DNA of 33,382 bases from Multifurca ochricompacta (taxonomy: Eukaryota > Basidiomycota > Agaricomycetes > Russulales > Russulaceae). A model generated the notes under the pieces. The model ran no database searches. It was not told where the DNA came from and worked only from the letters and a program-made list of their open reading frames with translations. A program made the position numbers and the translations under genes. The stretch covers positions 1 to 33,382 of the forward strand of contig WTXG01000346.1 of assembly GCA_022496185.1 (NCBI GenBank), in the 5' to 3' direction. Each line of letters begins with the position of its first letter. Within the stretch, counting starts at the first letter, position 1. Below, piece by piece: positions 2,786 to 28,861 of the stretch.

Positions 2786-3102
2786 TGTTACGAACCCCAT
2801 CTTCGCCTGTATTCTTTTTCCTGCCCAGCGATGACCCCTCCTTGCCGCCTACTTTACACTTCTCGATCACGTCTCCATCGTGGGACCCCTCACGTGCCCT
2901 GCTCCCATCCCCGTGACCCAGTTTACATCCGTTGACGCACTGTTTACTTATGCTTGCCCTCGTTATCTTCTTATCTCCTTATCTTAAGATCGGACACTTA
3001 CTTAGTACCCTATCAGAAGCTAGGCTTTACGCCCTCCGCTTTCGTATATTTGGGCCCACCTGACTCTGTACTCTTATCTCGTAGACGCCCGACTGAGTTA
3101 CG

Positions 3103-3147
3103 TATATAAGTCCGCTGTAGCTACCCTGTAGACCTCAGACTTGACTT
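3103..3147 (+). promoter_or_regulatory. Gyp-1a LTR promoter and self-primer sequence
   Basis: TATA box TATATAAG at 3103-3110 is followed 34 nt later by AGACTTGACTT at 3137-3147. That 11-mer is the exact reverse complement of the primer site at 3373-3383. I infer that the RNA begins at 3137 and its own 5' end primes reverse transcription. The same 34-nt spacing recurs in Gyp-1b and Gyp-2. Confidence 0.75.
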
Positions 3148-3207
3148 ATTGAATACATCGGTGCCTGTCTTCTGGACATCCCCTTTGATCTTCGACTCAG
3201 TTGTCTC

Positions 3208-3346
3208 AAGTGCTTCTGGCACTTCTCCGCTCAACATCGTCTTAGGGAAGCGTCCCTTTGACTTTGACTCGTCCCTCTTACACTCCAAGAAGCCCCATTG
3301 GTTTCTTATCTGACTCTACGAATTACGCTGTCACACAAGTCGTGTG
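3208..3346 (+). other. Three predicted RNA hairpins in the Gyp-1a R-U5 leader
   Basis: Stem 1 is at 3208-3224 (AAGTGC, loop TTCTG, GCACTT). Stem 2 is at 3287-3307 (AAGAAGCC, loop CCATT, GGTTTCTT). Stem 3 is at 3332-3346 (CACAC, loop AAGTC, GTGTG). Gyp-3 keeps all three, with paired changes in stems 2 and 3. Gyp-2 clearly keeps stem 1. They probably fold the leader for priming or packaging; the role is inference. Confidence 0.55.
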
Positions 3347-3372
3347 GAACGTCCTGCATCGGACGTAACATC

Positions 3373-3383
3373 AAGTCAAGTCT
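3373..3383 (+). other. Gyp-1a primer-binding site (self-primed type)
   Basis: AAGTCAAGTCT begins two bases after the LTR. It does not end in the TGG expected for pairing to a tRNA 3' CCA end. It is perfectly complementary to 3137-3147. Confidence 0.75.
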
Positions 3384-3389
3384 CTCATC

Positions 3390-4901
3390 GTGGCTTCCAG
3401 CCGCAGTCAGACCTTGTTTAAAGAAGAACTCATCGAACGTCGAGAAGAGAATAATCTTCCACAGCGGACACTTGGCTCTGCCACCTGGAAAGACTTTGAA
3501 TCCGAGTTTGGATACTACGTCTATCACGACGGAAGATACCAACCAGTAGAATACGACGACGAGAAAAGGGTTTGGTATCGGATCCGATATTCGGATAGCC
3601 GACACTCTTGGGTCACCACAGGACCCGCCCCACCTGAATTTGGATTAGGACCGTGGAGAGAAAATCCCCCGGCCATTGTTACGGACTCTGAACCAGAAGA
3701 GTACGTAGAAGAACATAGCGAAGAAGCACTGGTATTAGCGTCGACTACAACCCCAGTTGCACCGGCAGTTGTCACAATCAGAGCCCCTGCTTTGACAACT
3801 CCTCAGAGATCCACACAGTCCACCAGCACCGTCACTCCATCAAAAATGTCTACCATCGCCGCTCAACTCCCAGACCCAGTCCCTCCTCCCCCGCCGCCTC
3901 CGCCGGCAATGATGCCACCAAACATACCCCCACCCTCTGGACGGCTGTCGGGAGTACTGCCCCAGACATTTACTGGAGATCGCTCCCAGAGCAAGAAATT
4001 TATGTTGGAATTCACAACATTCAAAAATTTCAACCACGATGTTCCCCAGATTATCAACCCCTTTCAACGCGCCAATCTTTTCCTATCTTTGATATGAGGA
4101 GACGCAGTAGATGACTGGACAATGGAGCAGCTGGAGTGGCTGAACGAAGAAGTCGAAAGTGGTCGTCGTACCACTAGTGAAGGTCTTTGGGAAACGGTTG
4201 CCCAGAGATTCAAGGATGCGTTCACAGACGGGCAAGCCAAGCAGAAGGCTGCCCGAGAGCTGAAGTCCCTCAAAATGGAAAAGGGAGAGTTGGATGCCTA
4301 TGTGGCGAAATTCAGAAGCCTGGCTAATAGGGCTGGGTATGACACGGATGAAGAGGCTACGTTAGACCTCTTCTCGCAGGGGTTGCCCAACCCGCTGGTC
4401 AAAAACATCATCCAGTTCCATCACCCCCAGGACTGGGATGCATGGGTCGATGCTGCCAGACGACAGCAACAAGATTATCTCGACTTCCAAACACGTTTCG
4501 GAGTCGACACTAAGAAGGGAAAAACCCGCGACCAGTGGAAGGCCGCCTTTGGAGTTAAACCCGCCCACGCCTCTCAAAGGGATCCAAATGCGATGGACAC
4601 CTCCGCTGATAGAACCAGAGCGCGAGTGGCGCTTACTGAAGACGAGAGACAAACGCTGATGAAGGAGGGGAGATGCTTTCGCTGCAAAGCATTGGGCCAC
4701 ATATCGAGGGAATGCCCAAGGAAAGGGGCACGAGTGGCGGAAGCAACGGTCTCACCTATCCGTAACAATCCACCCACCGTTGACAAGAAAACGCCGACAA
4801 AAGAAGAAAAGGCGCAAGAAATATGGGCAAATATGATGAAGGAGAGTGAGGAAGTACGAGCCATCTTGGTAGAGAAAGCGTTCGCCAAAAAGGATTTTTG
4901 A
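3390..4901 (+). pseudogene. Gyp-1a gag (capsid/nucleocapsid), one in-frame stop
   Basis: The gag frame runs from GTG at 3390 to TGA at 4899-4901, about 503 codons. A single TGA at 4095-4097 interrupts it; Gyp-1b has CGA there, so this is an Arg-to-stop CpG transition. Order: a conserved N-terminal domain (about residues 28-95), a proline run near residue 165, a capsid-like retrotransposon gag domain (about 235-345), and a CCHC zinc knuckle CFRCKALGHISREC (429-442). No ATG lies upstream in frame: TAA at 3366-3368 closes the frame, and the first ATG in any frame after the presumed transcript start is at 3846 (MSTIAAQ). Start by GUG is inferred from conservation of GTGGCTTC in Gyp-2 and Gyp-3. 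Confidence 0.88.
4895..4901 (+). promoter_or_regulatory. Gyp-1a gag-pol junction, probable -1 frameshift site
   Basis: gag ends GAT TTT TGA, and the pol frame enters as TTG ATT one base back. A tRNA on TTT can slip -1 and still pair fully on the TTTTT run. The same GGATTTTTGA stands in Gyp-1b and Gyp-2. Just downstream, GGCTC and GAGC can close a stem around CCC/GGG. Confidence 0.6.
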
Positions 4902-7900
4902 TTGGCTCTACCCCATCGGCCTGGGCACGAGCATTACATGTAACCTCTGTGTACACTAGTCGCTTCAAATCACTGAAAATACCAGTACATTTCGAGACTA
5001 CGCAGAGGACGGCCGACCGAGATATCCTGATAGATTCAGGAGCCACTGATAACTTCATCAGTCCGCGGATGGCAAGGACTATGGGGTTGGGGATGCTGGA
5101 ACTTCCCCAAGAAAAGAATATTTGGAATATAGATGGGACGGCCAACAGAGCCGGGAAAATCACTCATTATACCGACCTCAACGTCCAAGTAGGAGAAAGA
5201 ACAAAAGCAATTCGATTCCTTGTCACCAATCTAGGGAGTGAAGATCTGATCCTAGGGTATCCGTGGTTGGCTGCGTTTGAACCAAAAATCAATTGGAGCG
5301 ATGCAACCATGGACAAGGAGTGTTACCCTGTTCTCATCACGTCCTTGGGATACGATTATGCCATCAGACATGCGAAGACGGTAGAAGGGACGAAGGTCGC
5401 TGTTATGCTACCAAGGCATCGAACTTGCTCAGAAGGCAGTGGAGGGGCATACTGAGAAGACCTTTGAAGAAGTAGTGCCGACAGTATATCACCAGCACTG
5501 GAAGGTGTTCTCGGAAGAGGAATCGCAACGTTTCCCACCTACGCGACCTTGGGATCATGCTATCGAATTTACACCTGACACCCCATCTGCCATCGACTGC
5601 AAGATCTACCCATTATCCCCAAAGGAGCAGACCGCCCTCACAGCATTCCTCGAAGAGCACCTCGCAAAAGGCTACATCCGTCCATCCAAATCACCATATG
5701 CATCGCCCTTCTTCTTCATCAAGAAGAAGGATGGTAAACTCCGACCAGTCCAGGATTACCGACGAATAAACGCTCATACCATAAAGAATGCTTACCCCCT
5801 TCCTCTTATCTCTGAACTCATCGATACCATGCGGGACAAATCCCTCTTCTCCAAGATGGACGTCCGATGGGGGTACAACAACATCAGAATTAAGGAAGGA
5901 GATCAATGTAAAGCCGCGTTCAAAACCAACCAGGGACTCTTCGAGCCAAATGTCATGTTCTTCGGCCTTACCAACTCGCCTGCCACTTTTCAATCTATGA
6001 TGAACCACATTTTCCGCGACCTCATCCTCACAGGTGAAGTAGTGGTATACATGGATGACATCCTTGTGGCGACGACGGACGATTTGGCTCATCATCGAGA
6101 ACGAGTCCACCAGGTATTGGGAATTCTACACGAACACGATCTATATCTCAAACCAGCCAAGTGCTCGTTTGAACAACGAAGTGTGGAATACCTAGGGGTC
6201 ATCCTGGAAGGAGGATGTGTCCGCATGGACCCAGTAAAAGTGCAAGGGATCCGGGAGTGGCCCATACCGACGTGTATCAAGGATGTGCGATCCTTCATTG
6301 GATTCTGCAATTTCTACCGACGGTTTGTACGGGATTCTCCGGAATTGCCCAACCGTTGAATGGGCTACTGAAGAAGGATGTACCCTGGCACTGGGGAGCT
6401 GAACAGCAACGAGCCTTTGAACAGATCCGAGATATCGTGGGCTCAGAGCCAGTTCTTCTGCAGCCGGATCTCGAGAAGCCCTTCGAACTTGAAGTTGATG
6501 CGTCCCACTTTGCAAATGGAGCGGTACTGAATCAACGGACACGACCGGCCTACTTCACCCGGTTGCCTTTTATTCGGAAACATTCTCACCGGCAGAACGA
6601 AACTACGACATTTGGGATAGAGAACTGCTCGCTATTGTAAAAGCGTTACGACATTGGCGACCATACCTAGCAGGAACTCCCCACAAAACCATCATTCATA
6701 CTGACCACTCCAACCTATTGTACTGGAAAGAGCCCCACAAGATTAGTCGACGGGTTGCCCGTGAAGTCCTAGAGTTAGAAGAATACAACTTCATGTTAAA
6801 ACACATTGCAGGAGTCGCAATGCCGCGGCGGATGCCCTGTCACGACGACCTGACTTGAACAGTGGCGAAGAGGACAATAATGATGTCACGTCCTCCTGAA
6901 GAGGTGTTCGCAAAAACCGCGTCGTGAGCCTCCATGACATGGATTATGGGCTCAAGTGTCACAAAATATGAACCACAATTATGCGAGTCATGGGCAGACG
7001 CACATAATCTAAAGAAGATTGATGGCCTTTGGTGGAAGGAGGGGACGACTCGTTGTCACCGGTGGCGACAACATTAAGAGGGGGGTGATCCATTTTCACC
7101 ATGACCTCCCTTCTGCGGGACACCCGGCATTGCTAACACGTATGCTTTGGCCAAACGAGACTACTGGTGGCCAAACATGAAGAAGGATGTGGAAGATTAT
7201 GTGAAGGGATGTGCGGACTGCCAAGCCAACAAAGTAAACACGCACCCGCACCCACCAGCACTATTCCCAATCACGCCAACAGCCTCACTCCCATTCCAGA
7301 CCATCGCAATGGACTTCATAGTCAAACTCCCCGTCTCCAGAGGATTTGACTCCGTCTTGACCATCACCGACCATGATTGCTCTAAAGCGGCACTGTTCAT
7401 ACCCTGTAATGAGTCCGTCACAGCGGAAGGGGTAGCCAAGCTTTACCTGGATCATGTCTATAGACACTACGGCCTCCCAGAAAAGATCATCTCTGACCGG
7501 GACCCGCGCTTCACCTCCGCATTCGCCAGAGCGCTTTGTAAGACCCTGGACATCACCCAAAACATCTCGACTGCCTATCACCCACAGACGGATGGACAAT
7601 CAGAAAGGACAAACCAGTGGCTAGAACAATACCTTCGGTTCTGGTGCAATGGACGACAGGACGACTGGGCCGACTGGTTGGCAATGGCGGAGTTTGCACA
7701 CAACTCATGGCCTAACGGGACCACTAAAACCCCTCCCTTCTCACTTATCATGGGATGGATGCCACGGACTAACTGGACTAAGAAACCCACAAACGTCCCA
7801 TCTGCTGCGCAGCATATCAGCCAGTGGGAAGAGATCCGGAAATCGGCCAATGAGAACCTGCTCAAGGCGCAAAGAACCTTATCCGAAAGACCATCGAAGT

Positions 7901-8352
7901 TTACGCCTTATCGGACCAATGACCTCGTCTGGCTAGAAGGAAAGAACATCCATACGTCACACCCCACGGCAAAGTTAGCCCCCCGCCGTCACGGGCCCTT
8001 CGAGATAACAAGGAAGCTGTCAGACGTGTCATATGAACTCAAACTTCCGCCCACATGGAGGATTCATCCGGTCTTCCATGCTAGACTTCTGATGCCTTAC
8101 AAAGAAACATCCCTACATGGGGAAAACTTCCCGAGACCCCCTCCTGAACTGATCGATGGAGAAGCGGAGTGGGAAGTGGAGCGAATTCTAGACTCCTCAC
8201 GTAAAGGCCGAGGGCGCAAGTTGCATTACCTAGTCAAGTGGAAGGGATTCCCAGACTCTGACAGCTCGTGGGAGCCAGCAGGGGATATCTTTGCCCCGGT
8301 CCTTATCTCGGAGTTCCACGCCCGACATCCTGAGGCGCCCAAGAATAGTTAA
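4898..8352 (+). pseudogene. Gyp-1a pol: protease, RT, RNase H, integrase, chromodomain (frameshifted)
   Basis: Same polyprotein as the intact copy in Gyp-1b. Visible motifs are protease [36 protein letters not shown] and YMDD, RNase H EVDAS, integrase SDRDPRFTS and QSERTNQ, and a chromodomain starting EWEVERIL. Against Gyp-1b it lacks one base near 5390 and another near 5425, one near 6334, one near 6537, and about ten more between 6800 and 7130. Almost all are single-base losses, many in short homopolymers. From 7147 to TAA at 8350-8352 the integrase and chromodomain frame is open (401 aa). The density of losses in about 330 bp is odd for so young a copy and may be a sequencing or assembly error. 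Confidence 0.9.
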
Positions 8353-8388
8353 AAGGATGACCCACACCCCAAGTAAAATCCCTAGTAC

Positions 8389-9627
8389 ATGCTTCCCCAG
8401 CAACGTCCTACCACTATCGAATCTATCATGTCTTTTGTCGCTGCCAACGCCGCCGTCGATGCCTTCACCTCTCCCATCATCACTGTCGAGAACTTTCCCT
8501 CTGCCCATCCCTCCACACGTCCCTCTTCCCCCATTGATTACGAAGCCACCGAAGCTCGAGTCAAGAATCAATCCCCCAACCCCAATGAAGACTTCGAGCA
8601 CAGCGAGGAACCACACCCGAACGACCTTGTAGGTATGGAGTCGGATGATGAAGCCCCCGAGTTCCCCTTTTTCACCAACAACCCCAACTCCTCCACGTAC
8701 TACCCACTGGAGATCACCATGGGCGATGGGACCGTTAAAACCGCTAAGTACATCTTCTACACTAATGGAGGAATGGATGTCGCCGGGTGTATGAAGAAGG
8801 ACGGCCCCGTCTATGGAGCTCCGGTCTATCTGGAGGAAAGGTACACCGGTCGCCTGCATCACACAATGACCGACGAACAATTGGGGCACTTGGCTGCTGA
8901 AGATCCCAGGGCCTTCGCTATCGATGAAGTAATGAGTGACATGCGACTTCCGCGCCTCAAAGCCGAGGTAATGAGGCTGCGGAAGAACCTAACCTTGCGC
9001 AACACACTCAACCGACAGTATAAAGAACATGCCAAGATGATGGCCCAGTTGACCAACGGGATGTTCCAAATTGAGCAGGAGTTAGTGGAGATCCGGAAGA
9101 GGTTGGAGAAGGGGGACGCATACCAAACGATTGCTGAGAGGTACGCCGACACTTATGCCCGACCTCTCCCACCGCGATCGCTAGGGGCTGCCCCGGTGCT
9201 GCTGCCAAACCGATTTGAAATGCCGCGCATGCACGAGAATCCTCGGGGGGAGACATGCTGGAGGTGCGACAGTAAGTACCACATTAGCTGGAACTGCCCC
9301 CTCAATCGCAAGTGGTGCCGGCACTGTCGTAGCAATCTGCATTGGAGCAGGTTCTGTATCTTCCGCCGAGTAGGAGTCGCCCCGACCATCAGCAACCCGT
9401 CCGGGTGGTGTGGCAAGTGCCTGCGTCACAATTCAGGACACCGGGAGTTGGACTGCCCCATCCATGACGTGTGCCACTTGTGCAGGCAGCGGGGCCCCTA
9501 TGGATTCCTCCGTACGCACAGATGCCCCCAGGATGATGACAAAGAGAATTACACCATGGACGATCGTAATGTAGCCGACGATTACCTGGAGTTGGTACAG
9601 GATGATGACGGTACGAATCGTTTCTAG
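8389..9627 (+). CDS. Gyp-1a ORF3: coiled-coil protein with four C-terminal zinc-knuckle motifs
   Basis: An intact 412-residue frame (399 if it starts at the second ATG, 8428, which aligns with the Gyp-3 start MSSF). Order: Ser/Pro-rich acidic N-terminus; a conserved block around residues 92-150 (TNNPNSSTYYPLEIT, YIFYTNGGMDVAGCMKKD); charged, leucine-rich, probable coiled coil 188-242; then Cys/His motifs at 290-303 (CX2CX4HX4C), 310-323 (CX2CX4HX4C), 341-356 (CX2CX6HX4C) and 362-379 (CX2CX11HXC); acidic tail. The first two match retroviral nucleocapsid knuckles, so nucleic-acid binding is likely. No signal peptide or membrane segment is seen, so it is not an envelope. It follows pol by 36 nt, with three stops between them in the shared frame, and ends 31 nt before the 3' LTR. 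I do not recognise the family; function unknown. Confidence 0.85.
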   Translation: MLPQQRPTTIESIMSFVAANAAVDAFTSPIITVENFPSAHPSTRPSSPIDYEATEARVKNQSPNPNEDFEHSEEPHPNDLVGMESDDEAPEFPFFTNNPNSSTYYPLEITMGDGTVKTAKYIFYTNGGMDVAGCMKKDGPVYGAPVYLEERYTGRLHHTMTDEQLGHLAAEDPRAFAIDEVMSDMRLPRLKAEVMRLRKNLTLRNTLNRQYKEHAKMMAQLTNGMFQIEQELVEIRKRLEKGDAYQTIAERYADTYARPLPPRSLGAAPVLLPNRFEMPRMHENPRGETCWRCDSKYHISWNCPLNRKWCRHCRSNLHWSRFCIFRRVGVAPTISNPSGWCGKCLRHNSGHRELDCPIHDVCHLCRQRGPYGFLRTHRCPQDDDKENYTMDDRNVADDYLELVQDDDGTNRF

Positions 9628-9644
9628 CCGGGTCTGCTAGAACC

Positions 9645-9658
9645 AGAAGAGGGGGTGA
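9645..9658 (+). other. Gyp-1a polypurine tract
   Basis: AGAAGAGGGGGTGA directly abuts the 3' LTR and is the expected plus-strand primer. Gyp-1b and Gyp-3 have matching tracts (the latter GGAAGGAGGGTGA). Confidence 0.8.
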
Positions 9659-10243
9659 TGTTACGAACCCCGTCTTTGCCTGTATTCTTTTTCCTGCCCA
9701 GCGATGACCCCTCCTTGCCGCCTACTTTACACTTCTCGATCACGTCTCCATCGTGGGACCCCTCACGTGCCCTGCTCCCATCCCCGTGACCCAGTTTACA
9801 TCCGTTGACGCACTGTTTACTTATGCTTGCCCTCGTTATCTTCTTATCTCCTTATCTTAAGATCGGACACTTACTTAGTACCCTATCAGAAGCTAGGCTT
9901 TACGCCCTCCGCTTTCGTATATTTGGGCCCACCTGACTCTGTACTCTTATCTCGTAGACGCCCGACTGAGTTACATATATAAGTCCGCTGTAGCTACCCT
10001 GTAGACCTCAGACTTGACTTATTGAATACATCGGTGCCTGTCTTCTGGACATCCCCTTTGATCTTCGACTCAGTTGTCTCAAGTGCTTCTGGCACTTCTC
10101 CGCTCAACATCGTCTTAGGGAAGCGTCCCTTTGACTTTGACTCGTCCCTCTTACACTCCAAGAAGCCCCATTGGTTTCTTATCTGACTCTACGAATTACG
10201 CTGTCACACAAGTCGTGTGGAACGTCCTGCATCGGACGTAACA
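9659..10243 (+). repeat. Gyp-1a 3' LTR
   Basis: 585 bp, paired with 2786-3370; three differences, all at CpG. Followed by the target duplication CAAAT at 10244-10248. Confidence 0.95.
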
Positions 10244-13881: not shown

Positions 13882-15098
13882 TGTTACGTCCGGTGTGAGA
13901 CGTCCTGTAACGGTTTGTGACGGGTCACGACACGGTTTGTGACAAAATGTGACGTTTTTTGAGTCGTGCACGCGCGCGCGTTCTGTTTCGACTTGGCTGT
14001 AATCTCTAGCTCCAAGTCATATGACTGGAGCTAGTACTTCTTTTATCAGATCACTTAGTTGCACACGATAGAGGGCGCAACCCCTCCTACTTATTCTCAT
14101 CTCAGTTCAGGGCATAACCCCTGGAGCATATGACTACCTGGATACTTACTACAGCCTTCTTGTTAGCTTATATTCATTTGATTGTACCTCACTCAACATG
14201 TATTTAAGCTGCTAGGTTACTGAGACAGACCTTAAGTCTGTTCTCTTGTATCTAATACAGGTGTATTCGACTTCACAGATATCTACTTGAACTCCCTAAG
14301 TGGCAGCTTAAGGAGCCTTCCTCCTCAGAAACTCTGCAGGGCTGATTGCCGCTGCTCCCGACTTCGTTCCCTGCACGCGCCCCCTCCTTATCATCGTGGG
14401 CACTTGAAATCTTGAACTGGACTAGGCCTTCTTAGTTGGACCTTGAATCTTGAGTGCGCTGCATACCTCGAGAGCCTTTGGACATCGAAAACGCAATTAG
14501 ACACAGTCGACACCTGGCTGTGACACGTCCTGCACGACTTGTGCGACAGCTTTGGTACGTTTGTTCAGATAAGAAGTCAATAGGACTTCTTGGAGTTTGT
14601 TAGAATGAAAGAGTCAAAGTCAAAGGGGCTGTTCCCTAGTGACGATGTTAAGCGGAAAGTGCCGAAAGCACTGAGACGATCGAGTCAAAGGTTTCAAGGG
14701 GAAGTCCAGAAGACAAACACCAATGTATACAATAAGTCGAGTCTGGGGTCTACAAGGTAGCTACCACGGACTTATATACGTAACTCAGTGGGCGTCTAAG
14801 AGATAAGGGTACGGAGTCAAGTGGGCCCAAATATCTGAAAGCGGAGGGTGTAAAGCCTGGCTTCTGATAGGGAACTAAGTAAGTGTCCGATCATAAGATA
14901 AGAAGATAACAAAGTAAGAAAGACAAGCATAGGTAAACAGTTCATATACAAGTCCAAACAGCAATCACGGGGATGGGAGGAGTGCATGTGAGGGATCCCA
15001 CGATGGAGACATAATAAGGAAGTGTAGCGTTGGTGGGCGAGTGGGGTCTCTGTTAGGGAGGGTAAAGAAAATGGGGCTGCTGGGCCCTGTTTGTAACA
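13882..15098 (-). repeat. Gyp-3 3' LTR, split by a solo LTR-S
   Basis: LTR sequence is 13882-13905 and 14531-15098, about 592 bp once the solo LTR and its extra CGTCC are removed. It pairs with 28862-29451. It retains AGACTCGACTT (minus strand of 14734-14744), exactly complementary to the Gyp-3 primer site. Confidence 0.92.
13906..14525 (+). mobile_element. Solo LTR-S inside the Gyp-3 3' LTR
   Basis: 620 bp, TGTAACGG to CACCTGGCTGTGACA, with a perfect duplication CGTCC at 13901-13905 and 14526-14530. It is inserted 24 bp into the Gyp-3 LTR and splits that LTR's CGTCCTGCACG sequence. It has a TATTTAAG box at 14201. It is the least decayed LTR-S here (CGCGCGCG retained where the 13345 copy has CGCACACGC). 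Confidence 0.92.
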
Positions 15099-15114
15099 TC
15101 ACCCTCCTTCCTGG
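15099..15114 (-). other. Gyp-3 polypurine tract
   Basis: On the minus strand CCAGGAAGGAGGGTGA abuts the 3' LTR, aligning with the Gyp-1 tract. Confidence 0.75.
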
Positions 15115-15129
15115 CTCAAGCTGACCCAG

Positions 15130-16320
15130 CTAGAAATGTGCACCATCGTCATCCTGGATCAAGTCCACATAGTCATCTGCCAAATTCCAATCCTCCACCG
15201 TGTAAGTTTCATCTGCGGCACATTGATGCGTGCGCAGAAACCCGTATGGGCCGCATCGTCCGCACTGGCGACACAGGTCGTAGACAGGGCAGTCGAGCTC
15301 GCGATGTCCCGCGTTATGTCGTAGACATTTTCCGCACCAACCTGAGGGATTGACGATGGTGGGAGCAACACCCAGACGTCGGAAAATGCAGAACCGGCTC
15401 CAATGTAAATTACTTCGGCAGTGATGACACCATTTGCGATTGAGCAGGCAGTTCCAACTGATGTGATACTTGCTGTCACATCGCCAGCAAGTCTCTCCGC
15501 GGGGATTTTTGTGCATGCGTGGCATCTCGAATCGGTTTGGCAATAGTTGTGGCACCGCTCCTAATGATCGTGGGGGAAGGGGTCGTGCGTAGGTGTCTGC
15601 GTACCTCTCGGCAATTGTCTGATATGCGTCCCCCTTCTCCAGTCTCTTCCGAATCTCTGTCAACTCCTGCTCCACTTGGAACATCCCCCTTGTAAGCCTT
15701 GTCATCTGTTTGGCATATTCTTTGTACTGGGTGTTGAGTGTGGTGTGAAGTGTGAGGGTTTTCCGCAGCCTCATTACTTCGGCCTTGAGGCGCGGGAGTC
15801 GCATGTCGTTCATCACCTCATCAATGGCAAAGGCTCGGGGGTCGTCAGCTGCAAGGTGTCCTAACTGTTCATCACTCATCGTGTGGTGGAGATGGCCTGT
15901 GTACCGTTCCTCCAAATAAACCGGGGCCCCATAAACAGGTCTGTCCTTTTTCATACATCCCGCGACATCCATCCCTCCATTGGTGTAGAATATATATTTT
16001 GCTATGGCCTTTGTTCCGTCAGCCATGGTGATTTCGAGGGGGAAGTACGTTGATGAGTTGGGATTGTTGGCAAAGAATGGGAATTTGGGTACTTCGTCGT
16101 CTTGTTCCATACCGATGAGGTCGTTGGGGTGGGGTTCTTCGGCATGAGTGAAGTCGTCGTCGGGATTGGGTGACTGGTTCTTGACTCGTTCTTCTGTGGC
16201 CTCGTAGTCAATGGGGGAGGAAGGGCGAGTGGAGGGGTGAGCGGAGGGGAAAGCCTCTACAACCACATGAGTGGTAGAGAAGGCGTCGATAGCGGCGGAG
16301 GCAGTGATGAAGGAAGACAT
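15130..16320 (-). CDS. Gyp-3 ORF3: coiled-coil, four-zinc-knuckle protein
   Basis: 396 residues from ATG at 16320 (MSSFITASAAIDAF). The open frame extends upstream into the end of pol, but this ATG aligns with the internal Met of Gyp-1 ORF3. The whole protein aligns with Gyp-1 ORF3: the NNPNSSTYFPLEIT block, YIFYTNGGMDVAGCMKKD, the coiled coil, and all four Cys/His motifs (CWRCDSKYHISWNC, CHHCRSNLHWSRFC, CGKC..., CRQC...). In a 15-codon sample (Gyp-1 residues 97-111) I count six synonymous changes and one replacement. That indicates selection on the protein. Remarkably, it is intact in an element whose gag and RT are broken. Function unknown. Confidence 0.85.
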   Translation of the reverse strand: MSSFITASAAIDAFSTTHVVVEAFPSAHPSTRPSSPIDYEATEERVKNQSPNPDDDFTHAEEPHPNDLIGMEQDDEVPKFPFFANNPNSSTYFPLEITMADGTKAIAKYIFYTNGGMDVAGCMKKDRPVYGAPVYLEERYTGHLHHTMSDEQLGHLAADDPRAFAIDEVMNDMRLPRLKAEVMRLRKTLTLHTTLNTQYKEYAKQMTRLTRGMFQVEQELTEIRKRLEKGDAYQTIAERYADTYARPLPPRSLGAVPQLLPNRFEMPRMHKNPRGETCWRCDSKYHISWNCLLNRKWCHHCRSNLHWSRFCIFRRLGVAPTIVNPSGWCGKCLRHNAGHRELDCPVYDLCRQCGRCGPYGFLRTHQCAADETYTVEDWNLADDYVDLIQDDDGAHF

Positions 16321-16391
16321 ATCAGTTGTGGTTAGGACGTTGCTAGTGAAGCGGTGTTCTGGGGAAGAAGAGGTCGGGAATCCGTCCTCTT

Positions 16392-17466
16392 TTAATTGTT
16401 CTGGGGCGCTTGGGGATGTCGTAAATGGAACTCTGCGATCAGGTCCAGAGCAAAGATGTTCCCGGCTGGTTCCCACGAATTGTCAGAGTCTGGGAAACCC
16501 TTCCACTTGATCAGGTAATACAGCTTGCGCCCTCGGCCTCGATAGGCGGAGTTTACAATCTGCTCCACTTCCCATTCCTCTTCTCCATCCACTAATTCCG
16601 GTGGAGGTCTCGGGAAGTTTTCCCCATGAATGGACGTTTCCTTATATGGTGTGAGGAGCTTGGCATGGAAGACCGGGTGAATCTTCCATGTGGGGGGGAG
16701 ATCGAGCTCATATGACACGTCTGACAGCTTCCTTGTGATTCTGAAAGGTCCGTGACGTCGGGGTGCCAGTTTAGCTGTGGGGTGTGACGTATGGATGTGC
16801 CTCCCTTCCAGCCAAACCCGTTCATTGGCTTGATAAGGTGTGAATTTCGAGGGCTTATCCGATAGGGTTCGTTGCGCCTTCAGCATGTTTTCATTGGCTG
16901 ATTTCCGGATCTCGTCCCATTGGCTAAGCCGTTGTGAAGTCGTGGGGACGTTTGTTGGCTTATCAGTCCATGTGGTGTGTGGTACCCAGCCCATGATAAG
17001 GGAAAATGGGGGGGTCTTTGTTGTGCCATTAGGCCAGGAGTTATGCGCAAACTCTGCTGTTGCCAGCCAGTCTGCCCAGTTGTCCTGTCGTCCGTTGCAC
17101 CAGAATCGGAGGTATTGCTCCAGCCATTGATTGGTACGCTCTGACTGTCCGTCTGTTTGGGGGTGATAGGCTGTCGAGATGTTCTGCTGTATGTCCAGAA
17201 CCTTGCATAGTGCTCTGGCAAATGTCGAGGTAAAGCGTGGGTCTCGGTCAGAGATAATCTTCTCTGGGAGGCCGTAATGTCGGTAGACGTGGTCGAGATA
17301 AAGTTTAGCCACTCCTTCAGCTGTGATCGACTCCTTGCATGGTATGAAGAGTGCTGCTTTAGAGTAGTCATGGTCCGTGATGGTCAGAATGGAGTCAAAG
17401 CCCCTAGAGTTGGGTAGCTTGACTATGAAATCCATGGCAATTGTCTGGAATGGCAGAGATGTAGTG
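16392..17466 (-). pseudogene. Gyp-3 pol, integrase core to chromodomain (3' part)
   Basis: An open frame after the Gyp-1b insertion. It starts TSLPFQTIAMDFIVKLP (first catalytic Asp), then SDRDPRFTS (second Asp) and QSERTNQWLEQYL (Glu), with the 35-residue Asp-Glu spacing. Next come the KLAPRRHGPFRI module and a chromodomain (EWEVEQIV...KGFPDSDNSWEP). It ends HPQAPQNN. The upstream part of the same gene is at 24942-27347; the break has duplication TAGTG (17462-17466 and 24937-24941). No damage is seen in this half. Confidence 0.9.
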
Positions 17467-18051
17467 TGTTACGTCCGATGCAGGACGTTCCACACGACTT
17501 GTGTGACAGCGTAATTCGTAGAGTCAGATAAGAAACCAATGGGGCTTCTTGGAGTGTAAGAGGGACGAGTCAAAGTCAAAGGGACGCTTCCCTAAGACGA
17601 TGTTGAGCGGAGAAGTGCCAGAAGCACTTGAGACAACTGAGTCGAAGATCAAAGGGGATGTCCAGAAGACAGGCACCGATGTATTCAATAAGTCAAGTCT
17701 GAGGTCTACAGGGTAGCTACAGCGGACTTATATATGTAACTCAGTCGGGCGTCTACGAGATAAGAGTACAGAGTCAGGTGGGCCCAAATATACGAAAGCG
17801 GAGGGCGTAAAGCCTAGCTTCTGATAGGGTACTAAGTAAGTGTCCGATCTTAAGATAAGGAGATAAGAAGATAACGAGGGCAAGCATAAGTAAACAGTGC
17901 GTCAACGGATGTAAACTGGGTCACGGGGATGGGAGCAGGGCACGTGAGGGGTCCCACGATGGAGACGTGATCGAGAAGTGTAAAGTAGGCGGCAAGGAGG
18001 GGTCATCGCTGGGCAGGAAAAAGAATACAGGCGAAGACGGGGTTCGTAACA
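17467..18051 (-). repeat. Gyp-1b 3' LTR
   Basis: 585 bp, paired with 24352-24936. On the element strand it is preceded by the purine tract at 18052-18065 (AGAAGAGGGGGTGA), as in Gyp-1a. Confidence 0.95.
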
Positions 18052-18082
18052 TCACCCCCTCTTCTGGTTCTAGCAGACCCGG

Positions 18083-19320
18083 CTAGAAACGATTCGTACC
18101 GTCATCATCCTGTACCAACTCCAGGTAATCGTCGGCTACATTACGATCGTCCATGGTGTAATTCTCTTTGTCATCATCCTGGGGGCATCTGTGCGTACGG
18201 AGGAATCCATAGGGGCCCCGCTGCCTGCACAAGTGGCACACGTCATGGATGGGGCAGTCCAACTCCCGGTGTCCTGAATTGTGACGCAGGCACTTGCCAC
18301 ACCACCCGGACGGGTTGCTGATGGTCGGGGCGACTCCTACTCGGCGGAAGATACAGAACCTGCTCCAATGCAGATTGCTACGACAGTGCCGGCACCACTT
18401 GCGATTGAGGGGGCAGTTCCAGCTAATGTGGTACTTACTGTCGCACCTCCAGCATGTCTCCCCCGAGGATTCTCGTGCATGCGCGGCATTTCAAATCGGT
18501 TTGGCAGCAGCACCGGGGCAGCCCCTAGCGATCGCGGTGGGAGAGGTCGGGCATAAGTGTCGGCGTACCTCTCAGCAATCGTTTGGTATGCGTCCCCCTT
18601 CTCCAACCTCTTCCGGATCTCCACTAACTCCTGCTCAATTTGGAACATCCCGTTGGTCAACTGGGCCATCATCTTGGCATGTTCTTTATACTGTCGGTTG
18701 AGTGTGTTGCGCAAGGTTAGGTTCTTCCGCAGCCTCATTACCTCGGCTTTGAGGCGCGGAAGTCGCATGTCACTCATTACTTCATCGATAGCGAAGGCCC
18801 TGGGATCTTCAGCAGCCAAGTGCCCCAATTGTTCGTCGGTCATTGTGTGATGCAGGCGACCGGTGTACCTTTCCTCCAGATAGACCGGAGCTCCATAGAC
18901 GGGGCCGTCCTTCTTCATACACCCGGCGACATCCATTCCTCCATTAGTGTAGAAGATGTACTTAGCGGTTTTAACGGTCCCATCGCCCATGGTGATCTCC
19001 AGTGGGTAGTACGTGGAGGAGTTGGGGTTGTTGGTGAAAAAGGGGAACTCGGGGGCTTCATCATCCGACTCCATACCTACAAGGTCGTTCGGGTGTGGTT
19101 CCTCGCTGTGCTCGAAGTCTTCATTGGGGTTGGGGGATTGATTCTTGACTCGAGCTTCGGTGGCTTCGTAATCAATGGGGGAAGAGGGACGTGTGGAGGG
19201 ATGGGCAGAGGGAAAGTTCTCGACAGTGATGATGGGAGAGGTGAAGGCATCGACGGCGGCGTTGGCAGCGACAAAAGACATGATAGATTCGATAGTGGTA
19301 GGACGTTGCTGGGGAAGCAT
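18083..19320 (-). pseudogene. Gyp-1b ORF3, frameshifted before the zinc knuckles
   Basis: Identical in plan to Gyp-1a ORF3 through MHENPRG. There a run of six G in Gyp-1a is five G here (near 18470). The shifted frame ends at 18337 after 327 residues and loses all four Cys/His motifs. The downstream sequence still encodes them in the other frame up to the TAG at 18083-18085. A programmed shift is unlikely because the Gyp-3 ORF3 has no G run at this place. A one-base homopolymer error in the assembly is a real alternative. Confidence 0.85.
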
Positions 19321-19356
19321 GTACTAGGGATTTTACTTGGGGTGTGGGTCATCCTT

Positions 19357-22300
19357 TTAACTATTCTTGGGCGCCTCAGGATGTCGGGCGTGGAACTCCG
19401 AGATAAGGACCGGGGCAAAGATATCCCCTGCTGGCTCCCACGAGCTGTCAGAGTCTGGGAATCCCTTCCACTTGACTAGGTAATGCAACTTGCGCCCTCG
19501 GCCTTTACGTGAGGAGTCTAGAATTCGCTCCACTTCCCACTCCGCTTCTCCATCGATCAGTTCAGGAGGGGGTCTCGGGAAGTTTTCCCCATGTAGGGAT
19601 GTTTCTTTGTAAGGCGTCAGAAGTCTAGCATGGAAGACCGGATGAATCCTCCATGTGGGCGGAAGTTTGAGTTCATATGACACGTCTGACAGCTTCCTTG
19701 TTATCTCGAAGGGCCCGTGACGGCGGGGGGCTAACTTTGCCGTGGGGTGTGACGTATGGATGTTCTTTCCTTCTAGCCAGACGAGGTCATTGGTCCGATA
19801 AGGCGTAAACTTCGATGGTCTTTCGGATAAGGTTCTTTGCGCCTTGAGCAGGTTCTCATTGGCCGATTTCCGGATCTCTTCCCACTGGCTGATATGCTGC
19901 GCAGCAGATGGGACGTTTGTGGGTTTCTTAGTCCAGTTAGTCCGTGGCATCCATCCCATGATAAGTGAGAAGGGAGGGGTTTTAGTGGTCCCGTTAGGCC
20001 ATGAGTTGTGTGCAAACTCCGCCATTGCCAACCAGTCGGCCCAGTCGTCCTGTCGTCCATTGCACCAGAACCGAAGGTATTGTTCTAGCCACTGGTTTGT
20101 CCTTTCTGATTGTCCATCCGTCTGTGGGTGATAGGCAGTCGAGATGTTTTGGGTGATGTCCAGGGTCTTACAAAGCGCTCTGGCGAATGCGGAGGTGAAG
20201 CGCGGGTCCCGGTCAGAGATGATCTTTTCTGGGAGGCCGTAGTGTCTATAGACATGATCCAGGTAAAGCTTGGCTACCCCTTCCGCTGTGACGGACTCAT
20301 TACAGGGTATGAACAGTGCCGCTTTAGAGCAATCATGGTCGGTGATGGTCAAGACGGAGTCAAATCCTCTGGAGACGGGGAGTTTGACTATGAAGTCCAT
20401 TGCGATGGTCTGGAATGGGAGTGAGGCTGTTGGCGTGATTGGGAATAGTGCTGGTGGGTGCGGGTGCGTGTTTACTTTGTTGGCTTGGCAGTCCGCACAT
20501 CCCTTCACATAATCTTCCACATCCTTCTTCATGTTTGGCCACCAGTAGTCTCGTTTGGCCAAAGCATACGTGTTAGCAATGCCAGGGTGTCCCGCAGAAG
20601 GGAGGTCATGGTGAAAATGGATCACCCCCCTCTTAATGTTGTCGCCACCGGTGACAACGAGTCGATCCCCGTCCTTCCACCAAAGGCCATCAATCTTCTT
20701 TAGATTATGTGCGTCTGCCCACGACTTGCATAATTGCTGGTTCATATTTTGTGACACTTGAGCCCATAAATCCATGTCATGGAGGCTCACGACGGCGGTT
20801 TTTGCGAACACCTCTTCAGGTAGGACTGTGACATCATTATTGTCTTCTTCGCCACTGTTCAAGTCAGGTCGTCGTGACAGGGCATCCGCGCGTGCATTGC
20901 GACTCCCTGCAATGTGTTTTAACATGAAGTTGTATTCTTCTAACTCTAGGACTTCACGGGCAACCCGTCGACTAATCTTGTGGGGCTCTTTCCAGTACAA
21001 TAGGTTGGAGTGGTCAGTATGAATGATGGTTTTGTGGGGAGTTCCTGCTAGGTATGGTCGCCAATGTCGTAACGCTTTTACAATAGCGAGCAGTTCTCTA
21101 TCCCAAATGTCGTAGTTTCGTTCTGCCGGTGAGAATGTTTCCGAATAAAAGGCAACCGGGTGAAGTAGGCCGGTCGTGTCCCGTTGATTCAGTACCGCTC
21201 CATTTGCAAAGTGGGACGCATCAACTTCAAGTTCGAAGGGCTTCTCGAGATCCGGCTGCAGAAGAACTGGCTCTGAGCCCACGATATCTCGGATCTGTTC
21301 AAAGGCTCGTTGCTGTTCAGCTCCCCAGTGCCAGGGTACATCCTTCTTCAGTAGCCCATTCAACGGTTGGGCAATTCCGGAGAATCCCCGTACAAACCGT
21401 CGGTAGAAATTGCAGAATCCAATGAAGGATCGCACATCCTTGATACACGTCGGTATGGGCCACTCCCGGATCCCTTGCACTTTTACTGGGTCCATGCGGA
21501 CACATCCTCCTTCCAGGATGACCCCTAGGTATTCCACACTTCGTTGTTCAAACGAGCACTTGGCTGGTTTGAGATATAGATCGTGTTCGTGTAGAATTCC
21601 CAATACCTGGTGGACTCGTTCTCGATGATGAGCCAAATCGTCCGTCGTCGCCACAAGGATGTCATCCATGTATACCACTACTTCACCTGTGAGGATGAGG
21701 TCGCGGAAAATGTGGTTCATCATAGATTGAAAAGTGGCAGGCGAGTTGGTAAGGCCGAAGAACATGACATTTGGCTCGAAGAGTCCCTGGTTGGTTTTGA
21801 ACGCGGCTTTACATTGATCTCCTTCCTTAATTCTGATGTTGTTGTACCCCCATCGGACGTCCATCTTGGAGAAGAGGGATTTGTCCCGCATGGTATCGAT
21901 GAGTTCAGAGATAAGAGGAAGGGGGTAAGCATTCTTTATGGTATGAGCGTTTATTCGTCGGTAATCCTGGACTGGTCGGAGTTTACCATCCTTCTTCTTG
22001 ATGAAGAAGAAGGGCGATGCATATGGTGATTTGGATGGACGGATGTAGCCTTTTGCGAGGTGCTCTTCGAGGAATGCTGTGAGGGCGGTCTGCTCCTTTG
22101 GGGATAATGGGTAGATCTTGCAGTCGATGGCAGATGGGGTGTCAGGTGTAAATTCGATAGCATGATCCCAAGGTCGCGTAGGTGGGAAACGTTGCGATTC
22201 CTCTTCCGAGAACACCTTCCAGTGCTGGTGATATACTGTCGGCACTACTTCTTCAAAGGTCTTCTCAGTATGCCCCTCCACTGCCTTCTGAGCAAGTTCC

Positions 22301-22824
22301 GATGCCTTGGTAGCATAACAGCGACCTTCGTCCCTTTCTACCGTCTTCGCATGTCTGATGGCATAATCGTATCCCAAGGACGTGATGAGAACAGGGTAAC
22401 ACTCCTTGTCCATGGTTGCATCGCTCCAATTGATTTTTGGTTCAAACGCAGCCAACCACGGATACCCTAGGATCAGATCTTCACTCCCTAGATTGGTGAC
22501 AAGGAATCGAATTGCTTTTGTTCTTTCTCCTACTTGGACGTTGAGGTCGGTATAATGAGTGATTTTCCCGGCTCTGTTGGCCGTCCCATCTATATTCCAA
22601 ATATTCTTTTCTTGGGGAAGTTCCAGCATCCCCAACCCCATAGTCCTTGCCATCCGCGGACTGATGAAGTTATCAGTGGCTCCTGAATCTATCAGGATAT
22701 CTCGGTCGGCCGTCCTCTGCGTAGTCTCGAAATGTACTGGTATTTTCAGTGATTTGAAGCGACTAGTGTACACAGAGGTTACATGTAATGCTCGTGCCCA
22801 GGCCGATGGGGTAGAGCCAATCAA
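19357..22824 (-). CDS. Gyp-1b pol polyprotein (protease-RT-RNase H-integrase-chromodomain), intact
   Basis: 1155 codons, entered at TTG 22824 by a -1 shift from gag, not by its own AUG. Domains in order: aspartic protease, DSG at 46-48; reverse transcriptase with [38 protein letters not shown] and YMDD at 385-388; RNase H with EVDASHF, HTDHSNLLYW and NARADALSR; integrase zinc module HFHHDLPSAGH...CADC; catalytic Asp 810, Asp 871 and Glu 907 (35 residues between the last two); the LAPRRHGPFEI module; chromodomain about 1095-1150 ending in a helix before HPEAPKNS. All catalytic residues are present. The chromodomain probably steers insertion to heterochromatin, as known for chromoviruses, which fits the nesting seen here. 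Confidence 0.95.
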   Translation of the reverse strand: MIGSTPSAWARALHVTSVYTSRFKSLKIPVHFETTQRTADRDILIDSGATDNFISPRMARTMGLGMLELPQEKNIWNIDGTANRAGKITHYTDLNVQVGERTKAIRFLVTNLGSEDLILGYPWLAAFEPKINWSDATMDKECYPVLITSLGYDYAIRHAKTVERDEGRCYATKASELAQKAVEGHTEKTFEEVVPTVYHQHWKVFSEEESQRFPPTRPWDHAIEFTPDTPSAIDCKIYPLSPKEQTALTAFLEEHLAKGYIRPSKSPYASPFFFIKKKDGKLRPVQDYRRINAHTIKNAYPLPLISELIDTMRDKSLFSKMDVRWGYNNIRIKEGDQCKAAFKTNQGLFEPNVMFFGLTNSPATFQSMMNHIFRDLILTGEVVVYMDDILVATTDDLAHHRERVHQVLGILHEHDLYLKPAKCSFEQRSVEYLGVILEGGCVRMDPVKVQGIREWPIPTCIKDVRSFIGFCNFYRRFVRGFSGIAQPLNGLLKKDVPWHWGAEQQRAFEQIRDIVGSEPVLLQPDLEKPFELEVDASHFANGAVLNQRDTTGLLHPVAFYSETFSPAERNYDIWDRELLAIVKALRHWRPYLAGTPHKTIIHTDHSNLLYWKEPHKISRRVAREVLELEEYNFMLKHIAGSRNARADALSRRPDLNSGEEDNNDVTVLPEEVFAKTAVVSLHDMDLWAQVSQNMNQQLCKSWADAHNLKKIDGLWWKDGDRLVVTGGDNIKRGVIHFHHDLPSAGHPGIANTYALAKRDYWWPNMKKDVEDYVKGCADCQANKVNTHPHPPALFPITPTASLPFQTIAMDFIVKLPVSRGFDSVLTITDHDCSKAALFIPCNESVTAEGVAKLYLDHVYRHYGLPEKIISDRDPRFTSAFARALCKTLDITQNISTAYHPQTDGQSERTNQWLEQYLRFWCNGRQDDWADWLAMAEFAHNSWPNGTTKTPPFSLIMGWMPRTNWTKKPTNVPSAAQHISQWEEIRKSANENLLKAQRTLSERPSKFTPYRTNDLVWLEGKNIHTSHPTAKLAPRRHGPFEITRKLSDVSYELKLPPTWRIHPVFHARLLTPYKETSLHGENFPRPPPELIDGEAEWEVERILDSSRKGRGRKLHYLVKWKGFPDSDSSWEPAGDIFAPVLISEFHARHPEAPKNS

Positions 22825-22827
22825 AAA
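22821..22827 (-). promoter_or_regulatory. Gyp-1b gag-pol -1 frameshift site
   Basis: TTTTTGA on the minus strand, with gag reading TTT TGA and pol entering at TTG. Same motif and context as at 4895-4901 and 13047-13053. Confidence 0.6.
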
Positions 22828-24332: not shown

Positions 24333-24338
24333 GATGAG

Positions 24339-24349
24339 AGACTTGACTT
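24339..24349 (-). other. Gyp-1b primer-binding site (self-primed type)
   Basis: Minus strand AAGTCAAGTCT, two bases after the 5' LTR. It is an exact complement of the presumed RNA 5' end AGACTTGACTT (minus strand of 24575-24585). Confidence 0.75.
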
Positions 24350-24351
24350 GA

Positions 24352-24936
24352 TGTTACGTCCGATGCAGGACATTCCACACGACTTGTGTGACAGCGTAAT
24401 TCGTAGAGTCAGATAAGAAACCAATGGGGCTTCTTGGAGTGTAAGAGGGACGAGTCAAAGTCAAAGGGACGCTTCCCTAAGACGATGTTGAGCGGAGAAG
24501 TGCCAGAAGCACTTGAGACAACTGAGTCGAAGATCAAAGGGGATGTCCAGAAGACAGGCACCGATGTATTCAATAAGTCAAGTCTGAGGTCTACAGGGTA
24601 GCTACAGCGGACTTATATATGTAACTCAGTCGGGCGTCTACGAGATAAGAGTACAGAGTCAGGTGGGCCCAAATATACGAAAGCAGAGGGCGTAAAGCCT
24701 AGCTTCTGATAGGGTACTAAGTAAGTGTCCGATCTTAAGATAAGGAGATAAGAAGATAACGAGGGCAAGCATAAGTAAACAGTGCGTCAACGGATGTAAA
24801 CTGGGTCACGGGGATGGGAGCAGGGCACGTGAGGGGTCCCACGATGGAGACGTGATCGAGAAGTGTAAAGTAGGCGGCAAGGAGGGGTCATCGCTGGGCA
24901 GGAAAAAGAATACAGGCGAAGACGGGGTTCGTAACA
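24352..24936 (-). repeat. Gyp-1b 5' LTR with promoter
   Basis: 585 bp. TATATAAG is on the minus strand at 24612-24619, and the presumed RNA start at 24585 is 34 nt downstream. R-U5 carries the same three hairpins as Gyp-1a and no ATG. Confidence 0.93.
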
Positions 24937-24941
24937 TAGTG

Positions 24942-28842: not shown

Positions 28843-28848
28843 TGTGAG

Positions 28849-28859: not shown

Positions 28860-28861
28860 GA

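What the first reader, a model, noticed from the sequence alone, without database searches (positions are those of the whole stretch)
8389..9627. A third gene after pol: coiled-coil protein with four zinc-knuckle motifs, conserved between two chromovirus families
Gyp-1 and Gyp-3 both carry ORF3 between pol and the polypurine tract. It has two canonical CX2CX4HX4C knuckles, then CX2CX6HX4C and CX2CX11HXC, a predicted coiled coil, and a novel-looking N-terminal block with no signal peptide or membrane span. In 15 aligned codons I see six synonymous and one replacement difference, so the protein was selected while the families diverged. Most Ty3/gypsy elements stop after pol. An env-position gene that looks like a nucleic-acid binder could act as a second nucleocapsid, an RNA chaperone for self-priming, or a regulator of silencing. 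The function is unknown.
Basis: partly seen in the sequence, partly recalled or inferred. Interest (0 to 1): 0.87.

Follow-up and report, generated by a model that had tools for sequence, protein, structure and literature searches.

The report
Retrotransposon accessory gene with own promoter
A large clan of jumping genes in a fungus (likely a mushroom) carries a third gene that selection has preserved as strictly as its replication enzymes; it is predicted to make a nucleic-acid-binding helper protein and is likely switched on by its own conserved start signal inside the element.

Summary
ORF3 lies between pol (chromodomain) and the polypurine tract in both window families. Gyp-1 and Gyp-3 ORF3 are 80% identical in protein while synonymous sites are saturated (about 210 synonymous, 100 replacement differences in 395 codons). 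Over 42 copies the median dN/dS is 0.04, against 0.056 for pol. In the window's own genome 38 of 38 ORF3 loci sit just behind a chromodomain and 29 of the 30 best chromodomain loci have ORF3 beside them; three loci of two related other families lack it. All four knuckle motifs are there.

New here: the 70-80 nt between pol stop and ORF3 ATG hold a conserved cassette, TTAAAAG, about 25 variable bases, CCCCAGWAC, CAGCAACGTCCTA, ATG. Its spacing matches TATATAAG-to-CYCAGACT in the elements' LTRs; 585 exact matches in the genome, 0 for the reversed pattern. Branch-point motifs are rare and no donor is shared by the two leaders examined. I read it as an internal core promoter giving ORF3 its own mRNA, the protein being an RNA-binding accessory factor. 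Transcription, RNA binding and function are untested.

The parts
8389..9627 (+). ORF3 of Gyp-1(+), 412 codons from the first ATG; likely start is the second in-frame ATG at 8428 (alignable with the Gyp-3 start)
8349..8355 (+). TATA-like TTAAAAG (overlaps the pol stop codon 8350-8352)
   Evidence: TTAAAA present in 63 of 64 distinct copies; cross-group identity 0.99
8380..8388 (+). initiator-like block, CCCCAGWAC in most copies; this copy reads CCCTAGTAC
   Evidence: 35 nt from the first T of TTAAAAG to the A of the AG, the commonest spacing
8398..8410 (+). conserved block CAGCAACGTCCTA upstream of the ORF3 ATG
8659..8859 (+). conserved N-terminal part of ORF3 (residues 91-157), predicted strands, no known fold
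   Evidence: models are of low confidence
8941..9156 (+). predicted long helix / coiled coil (residues 185-256)
   Evidence: heptad periodicity over 185-245, model helix 188-256
9256..9297 (+). zinc knuckle 1, CX2CX4HX4C (residues 290-303)
9316..9357 (+). zinc knuckle 2, CX2CX4HX4C (residues 310-323)
9409..9456 (+). knuckle-like motif 3, CX2CX6HX4C (residues 341-356)
9472..9525 (+). knuckle-like motif 4, CX2CX11HXC (residues 362-379)
7147..8352 (+). 3' part of pol of Gyp-1(+): integrase C-terminus and chromodomain
   Evidence: domains called on the near-identical minus copy
9645..9658 (+). polypurine tract before the 3' LTR
   Evidence: read
2786..3370 (+). 5' LTR of Gyp-1(+)
   Evidence: 582 of 585 identical to the 3' LTR; 5-bp target duplication CAAAT
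9659..10243 (+). 3' LTR of Gyp-1(+)
15130..16320 (-). ORF3 of Gyp-3 from the likely ATG (open frame reaches 16476)
16389..16395 (-). TTAAAAG of Gyp-3
16359..16364 (-). CCCCAG of Gyp-3
16333..16345 (-). TAGCAACGTCCTA of Gyp-3 (one mismatch to the block)
16392..17435 (-). 3' part of pol of Gyp-3 with chromodomain
18337..19320 (-). broken ORF3 of Gyp-1(-); its upstream block CAGCAACGTCCTA at 19299-19311

Best explanation
ORF3 is a protein-coding accessory gene kept under strong purifying selection by one clade of chromoviruses; it is likely transcribed from its own TATA/initiator-type promoter inside the element, and its product is predicted to bind nucleic acid through four zinc knuckles and to self-associate through a coiled coil. 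Shown: the open frame in many copies, its place between pol and the polypurine tract, dN/dS of about 0.04, the four knuckle motifs, and a conserved cassette before the ATG with the same spacing as the LTR core promoter. Inferred: that the cassette starts a short ORF3 mRNA with a leader of about 40 nt, and that the protein works in trans as a nucleocapsid-like RNA-binding partner of the element's RNA (packaging, strand annealing or RNA fate), made in amounts that Gag-Pol synthesis does not fix. Untested: transcription, RNA binding, dimers, and any effect on transposition.
For: Selection: Gyp-1 vs Gyp-3 synonymous sites saturated, protein 80% identical, codon-position differences 63/37/210, the other two forward frames give dN/dS of 1.6 and 2.3; 42 copies with at most two stops, median dN/dS 0.040 at dS 0.6-1.0 (85 pairs) and 0.039 at dS 1-3 (337 pairs), pol of 30 copies from the same loci (20 shared) 0.056 and 0.057. 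Linkage: chromodomain end within 350 nt upstream in 38 of 38 ORF3 loci; ORF3 beside 29 of 30 chromodomain loci, two of the 29 only with its first 60-75 residues. Motifs: all four in 18 of 19 aligned frames (the 19th, L055, leaves the frame within motif 3); knuckle block net charge +11 between acidic ends of -12 and -8; over the knuckles the PDB matches up to E 10 are nucleocapsids/Gag and Lin-28, all weak, best E 0.016. Cassette: TTAAAA in 63 of 64 distinct copies; first T to CCCAG 29-37 nt in 62 of 63, CCCAG to ATG 43-47 nt in 61 of 63; LTR TATATAAG to CYCAGACT 31 nt in 41 of 43 distinct LTRs; across the two groups of copies motif identity 0.99, 0.85, 0.89 against 0.38 (ORF3) and 0.47 (pol) at four-fold sites and 0.24-0.31 in the spacer; 585 exact genome matches with all three blocks, reversed control 0, but for the first two blocks only 2 matches at spacing 33-62 and 4 at 1-17.
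Against: No RNA data, so no start site is shown. The copies are related, so spacing may be partly inherited; the blocks were located by fuzzy matching (TTAAAA exact), which raises their identity figures. Neither window family matches the strict genome pattern: both Gyp-1 copies read CCCTAG and Gyp-3 has one mismatch in the third block; whether each of the 585 places precedes an ORF3 was not checked. CCCCAG also looks like a splice acceptor. In most copies TTAAAAG contains the pol stop codon, so part of its conservation may be coding; in five printed loci (L024, L028, L035, L038, L045) pol stops just before it and it is still kept. 8 of 63 copies have an out-of-frame ATG between initiator and ORF3 ATG. 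12 of 82 chromodomain matches had no recognisable ORF3 start and were not followed up. No solved structure, Pfam family or confident model supports a function; the element's Gag already has one zinc knuckle.
Confidence: 0.5

Rival explanations
1. ORF3 is translated from the full-length genomic RNA by termination and reinitiation or by an IRES, the conserved blocks being a ribosome-recruiting RNA element.
For: Pol stop to ORF3 ATG is about 70-82 nt in most printed loci, and TTAAAAG overlaps or abuts the pol stop. The block next to the ATG is kept in both groups although only one of them has an in-frame ATG before it (26 of 28 against 0 of 36).
Against: The gap is long for known termination-reinitiation (recalled); the narrow 29-37 nt range between TTAAAA and CCCAG across an unalignable spacer has no obvious meaning for a ribosome. 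Complementarity to 18S rRNA could not be tested: searches did not complete.
Confidence: 0.2
2. ORF3 is expressed from a spliced subgenomic mRNA, as retroviral env is, with CCCCAG (or the following CAG) as the acceptor.
For: Pyrimidine-rich run and CAG at the right place in many copies of one of the two groups.
Against: Branch-point motif CTRAY in the 45 nt upstream in only 2 of 63 copies, shuffles give 7.9 on average; no GTRNGT-type donor shared by the Gyp-1 and Gyp-3 leaders, the only two examined (Gyp-1 alone has a GTACGT; the shared GTAA is the LTR terminus); the other group mostly has no pyrimidine tract. Consensus motifs are recalled, not taken from this genome's introns.
Confidence: 0.12
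3. The protein is a self-encoded regulator (copy-number control or anti-silencing) and not a nucleocapsid-like helper of replication.
For: Precedent: Ty1 makes the Gag-derived inhibitor p22 from an internal promoter (PMC5834202 passages; PMC8458377 abstract start); foamy viruses express bel1/bel2 (tas, bet) from an internal promoter (PMC8003144 passages).
Against: No similarity of ORF3 to the element's Gag beyond a knuckle, unlike p22; no DNA-binding or activation domain found.
Confidence: 0.25
4. ORF3 is a decayed or atypical envelope gene.
For: Env position, a coiled coil, and a mildly hydrophobic stretch just behind the likely start (mean 1.45 at residues 13-31).
Against: No membrane span by hydropathy and zinc knuckles instead; no Pfam env match. 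No signal-peptide predictor was run.
Confidence: 0.02

Closest known systems
Fungal chromoviruses (Ty3/gypsy, Metaviridae)
   Same: gag, pol with protease, RT, RNase H, integrase and chromodomain, LTRs, 5-bp target duplications
   Different: a third conserved gene after the chromodomain; Novikova et al. [quoted passage not shown]
Bdelloid rotifer LTR elements with non-env ORF3 (PMC5408684, passages read)
   Same: family-specific ORF3 in env position, not an envelope
   Different: those encode GDSL esterase or DEDDy exonuclease or membrane proteins; the word zinc does not occur in that text
Ty1 internal promoter and p22 (PMC5834202 passages; PMC8458377 abstract start)
   Same: a second promoter inside a fungal LTR element gives a short RNA for a separate protein
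   Different: Ty1i lies within GAG and lacks a consensus TATA element; here the cassette lies after pol, has a TATA-like box and precedes a distinct gene
Foamy virus internal promoter and bel1/bel2 (tas/bet) genes (PMC8003144 passages)
   Same: accessory genes before the 3' LTR expressed from an internal promoter
   Different: that promoter lies in env (recalled), and there is no env here; similarity of the proteins was not compared
Retroviral nucleocapsid zinc knuckles, Lin-28
   Same: two canonical CCHC knuckles, weak sequence match
   Different: four motifs, two of unusual spacing, on a separate protein without a capsid domain match

Membership tests
Chromovirus (Ty3/gypsy) | integrase followed by chromodomain in pol | tested here: met
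   PF00385 E 1.6e-14 and integrase domains in the Gyp-1(-) pol; PF00385 7.1e-14 in Gyp-3
Chromovirus (Ty3/gypsy) | LTRs and target-site duplication | tested here: met
   LTR pairs 582/585, 583/585, 565/590; duplications CAAAT and TAGTG for the two Gyp-1 copies; none looked for beyond the printed flanks of Gyp-3
Envelope-bearing retroelement (errantivirus type) | membrane span / fusion protein in ORF3 | tested here: not met
   highest 19-residue hydropathy 1.45 and 1.22 in the two proteins; no Pfam env match; signal peptide not tested with a predictor
Nucleocapsid-type zinc-knuckle protein | CX2CX4HX4C motifs | tested here: met
   two canonical, two variant motifs; Pfam zf-CCHC itself is not reached for ORF3
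Nucleocapsid-type zinc-knuckle protein | nucleic-acid binding / chaperone activity | not testable with these tools
   needs protein
Gag duplicate | capsid domain homologous to the element's Gag | tested here: not met
   BLASTP of ORF3 with Gag: best match a knuckle stretch, E 0.017; no Retrotrans_gag hit in ORF3
Internal-promoter accessory gene (as in foamy viruses, Ty1i) | conserved core-promoter-like elements at fixed spacing before the gene | tested here: met
Internal-promoter accessory gene (as in foamy viruses, Ty1i) | subgenomic RNA starting there | not testable with these tools
   no RNA data
Spliced subgenomic gene (retroviral env type) | branch point, acceptor and donor | tested here: not met
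   branch-point motif in 2 of 63; no shared donor in the two leaders examined

The most novel reading that the evidence does not exclude
A clade of Ty3/gypsy chromoviruses has evolved a second transcription unit: a TATA/initiator cassette that reuses the pol stop codon region and copies the LTR promoter's geometry, driving a dedicated zinc-knuckle, coiled-coil RNA-binding protein that the element needs as much as its integrase.
Probability: 0.45. Interest if true: 0.75.

Novelty: new variant of a known kind. Interest (0 to 1): 0.58.

Why it matters
Ty3/gypsy elements outside the env-bearing groups are usually described with gag and pol only. Here a clade keeps a third gene at the same stringency as pol, with a promoter-like cassette of its own that occurs hundreds of times in one genome. 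That makes two questions testable: what a chromovirus gains from a free knuckle protein, and whether complex-retrovirus-like separate expression of accessory genes arose in fungal elements too.

Tried and rejected
Protein homologues: ORF3 alone gave none at E 0.001 among 2549 candidates; the profile of 19 copies gave one at E up to 10 among 7879 candidates, a 209-residue fragment from Multifurca ochricompacta, Russulaceae, 67% identical over 41%. Control: the pol of the same clade gave 5005 proteins at E 0.001 among the 7984 candidates scored, the best about 61-62% identical in the 120 rows listed, so the collection holds chromoviruses and ORF3 looks confined to a narrow lineage; the contigs of those pol hits could not be read, and longer fused gene models would escape the length limit. 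Plasmids and viral contigs: no match.

Structure: two AlphaFold jobs with three sequences each gave mean pLDDT 38 and 49; no fold search was made on them. Pfam at a loose cut-off gave only weak, scattered matches, best E 0.017.

Readthrough of the pol stop was rejected for the two window families: in Gyp-1 the pol stop and two more in-frame stops precede the ORF3 ATG (read), and in Gyp-3 ORF3 is in another frame. A count of stops directly before TTAAAAG ignored the reading frame and is discarded. A central polypurine tract was considered for TTAAAAGGAG; only TTAAAAG is strongly conserved.

Full report
What is there. The window holds Gyp-1 twice, in opposite orientation: a plus copy with LTRs at 2786-3370 and 9659-10243, and a minus copy with LTRs at 17467-18051 and 24352-24936, nested in Gyp-3 (minus, about 14507-29451). 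Pol of the minus copy is one open frame with protease, RT, RNase H, integrase and chromodomain. Behind the chromodomain follows ORF3: 8389-9627 in Gyp-1(+), 15130-16476 on the minus strand in Gyp-3, and a broken frame at 18337-19320 in Gyp-1(-). In Gyp-1(+) ORF3 ends about 17 nt before the polypurine tract (read). The LTR pairs of Gyp-1 differ at 3 and 2 of 585 sites, those of Gyp-3 at 25 of 590, so Gyp-1 moved recently.

Selection. Gyp-1 and Gyp-3 ORF3 proteins are 80% identical over 402 residues, yet synonymous sites are saturated: about 210 synonymous and 100 replacement differences in 395 codons, and 63, 37 and 210 differences at codon positions 1, 2 and 3. The other two forward frames give dN/dS of 1.6 and 2.3, the antisense frames 1.6, 0.14 and 3.4; the low one is the frame whose third positions fall on those of ORF3. 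From 57 single-stretch ORF3 copies in 68 fetched loci I kept 42 with at most two stops and dropped 15. Median dN/dS falls from 0.27 (4 pairs, dS below 0.1) to 0.087, 0.044, 0.040 and 0.039 (22, 27, 85 and 337 pairs) with growing dS; 362 of 861 pairs were saturated and are not in these medians. Pol (30 copies, 20 of them shared) behaves alike, 0.19 to 0.057. In the 112 of 190 shared pairs with usable dS in both genes ORF3 is at 0.038 and pol at 0.056. So ORF3 is kept as tightly as the integrase end of pol, with the usual laxness among the youngest copies.

Distribution. A search of the genome (53.8 Mb, 605 contigs) scored 101 ORF3 copies, 86-100% identical, of 2206 candidates; 70 of these 101 best-scoring copies have no internal stop (counted by eye). 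All 38 ORF3 loci cut out have a chromodomain end within 350 nt upstream on the same strand, and 36 of 38 hold the first two cassette blocks. Of the 30 best-scoring chromodomain loci 29 have ORF3 alongside; in two of them only the first 60-75 residues remain, and L060, the exception, runs into another element's gag. Six stretches behind pol genes found with a distant ascomycete pol were fetched: L071 and L072 hold ORF3; L069, L073 and L074 show none by profile in about 3 kb; L070 is uninformative, as it runs into another element. L073 and L074 are one family (94% over 1.1 kb) and L069 a related one (chromodomain end 65% identical). ORF3 thus goes with one clade. Outside this genome one relative was found, a fragment in the Russulaceae fungus Multifurca ochricompacta, which suggests but does not prove that the host is a relative of it. 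In the same collection pol of this clade finds thousands of relatives, up to about 62% identical in the rows listed.

The protein. Four cysteine-histidine motifs, an acidic N-terminus (-12), a conserved block of predicted strands (residues about 91-157), a helix with heptad periodicity (about 185-256), a basic knuckle block (+11) and an acidic tail (-8). All four motifs are in 18 of 19 aligned frames; L055 leaves the frame within the third. The knuckle part matches nucleocapsids and Lin-28 weakly, best E 0.016; the other PDB matches fall on the helix region. No Pfam family for Gyp-1 ORF3 at E 0.1 and one chance-level match for Gyp-3. With the element's Gag the best match is one knuckle stretch. 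A role beyond nucleic-acid binding cannot be read off.

The cassette. Among 82 chromodomain matches in the loci and window, 70 had a recognisable ORF3 start, giving 64 distinct stretches; the other 12 were not followed up. They share TTAAAA (63 of 64), then 29-37 nt to CCCAG (62 of 63; one at 19), then 43-47 nt to the ORF3 ATG (61 of 63). Between the two groups of copies (27 and 36 with all blocks) TTAAAAG is 99% identical, the initiator block 85%, CAGCAACGTCCTA 89%, four-fold sites 38% in ORF3 and 47% in pol, and the spacer 24-31%. In five printed loci pol ends at a TAG just before TTAAAAG, which is then wholly non-coding and still present. In one group an in-frame ATG precedes the CAGCAACGTCCTA block (26 of 28 copies), in the other none does (0 of 36) and in 16 of 36 an in-frame stop follows it before the ORF3 ATG, so it is kept as nucleotides whether translated or not. 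The composite pattern occurs 585 times in the genome and its reversal never; with the first two blocks spaced 33-62 or 1-17 there are 2 and 4 matches, close to the reversed controls (3 and 1). The window's own copies miss the strict pattern by one base each, and adjacency to ORF3 of all 585 was not checked. The LTR promoters of these elements have TATATAAG and, 31 nt on, CYCAGACT in 41 of 43 distinct LTRs. From the first T to the A of the AG this is 34 nt in the LTR (read) and 34-36 nt in 39 of 63 cassettes. Such spacing fits a TATA box and start site (established knowledge of RNA polymerase II core promoters, recalled); I therefore read the cassette as an internal promoter. The three ORF3-less loci and L060 lack the first two blocks at this spacing.

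Rivals for expression. Splicing: the branch-point motif CTRAY stands upstream of CCCCAG in 2 of 63 copies, less than in shuffles, and no donor is shared by the two leaders examined. Reinitiation or IRES is not excluded; the 18S test could not be run. Readthrough does not fit the stops and frames of the two window families.

Literature. In the listings of searches (titles and abstract starts; 20 of 55 papers shown, 6 of 45) I saw no paper on a knuckle-bearing ORF3 of a fungal chromovirus or on an internal promoter for one; subscription papers and Repbase entries are not covered. Novikova et al. 2010 (PMC2864245; section 5 and passages read) mention an additional ORF of unknown function in a figure legend on fungal elements, so a prior sighting cannot be excluded. 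Muszewska et al. 2011 (PMC3248453, passages) describe two ORFs, gag and pol, as usual. Bdelloid ORF3s (PMC5408684, passages) show that non-env ORF3s exist; Ty1i (PMC5834202, passages) and foamy viruses (PMC8003144, passages) show that internal promoters do.

Verdict. A real, strongly selected accessory gene of a chromovirus clade with a conserved promoter-like cassette: a new variant of a known kind. Coding and selection are shown; separate transcription is likely; RNA binding is predicted; the role in the life cycle is inference.

Noticed in passing
window 23880-24332 (-), also 3390 (+), 11527 (+), 28842 (-), L042, L060, L020, L050: In the eight places read, the gag frame after the stop at the LTR end has no in-frame ATG before codon 97, yet that stretch is conserved as protein (dN/dS about 0.1-0.2 between families), which points to a non-AUG or spliced-in start of Gag.
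   Followed up: partly
own genome: Of 31 stop-bearing ORF3 copies among the 101 scored, 28 carry TGA stops only, as expected from C-to-T decay of CGA codons; among Gyp-3-like copies TAA stops are common too, perhaps because that query includes the stretch before the ATG.
   Followed up: no
window 17467-24936 and 2786-10243: Two nearly identical young Gyp-1 copies in inverted orientation, one nested in Gyp-3, with 5-bp target duplications TAGTG and CAAAT.
   Followed up: partly
window 8230-8889 (-) and 18820-19479 (+): An antisense open frame of 219 codons overlaps the pol/ORF3 junction in both Gyp-1 copies. Its third positions fall on ORF3 first positions, and that antisense frame gives dN/dS 1.6 over the ORF3 alignment, so there is no sign of selection on it.
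   Followed up: partly
own genome, C379 (L069), C35 (L073), C315 (L074): Two related further chromovirus families without ORF3 in about 3 kb behind the chromodomain.
   Followed up: partly
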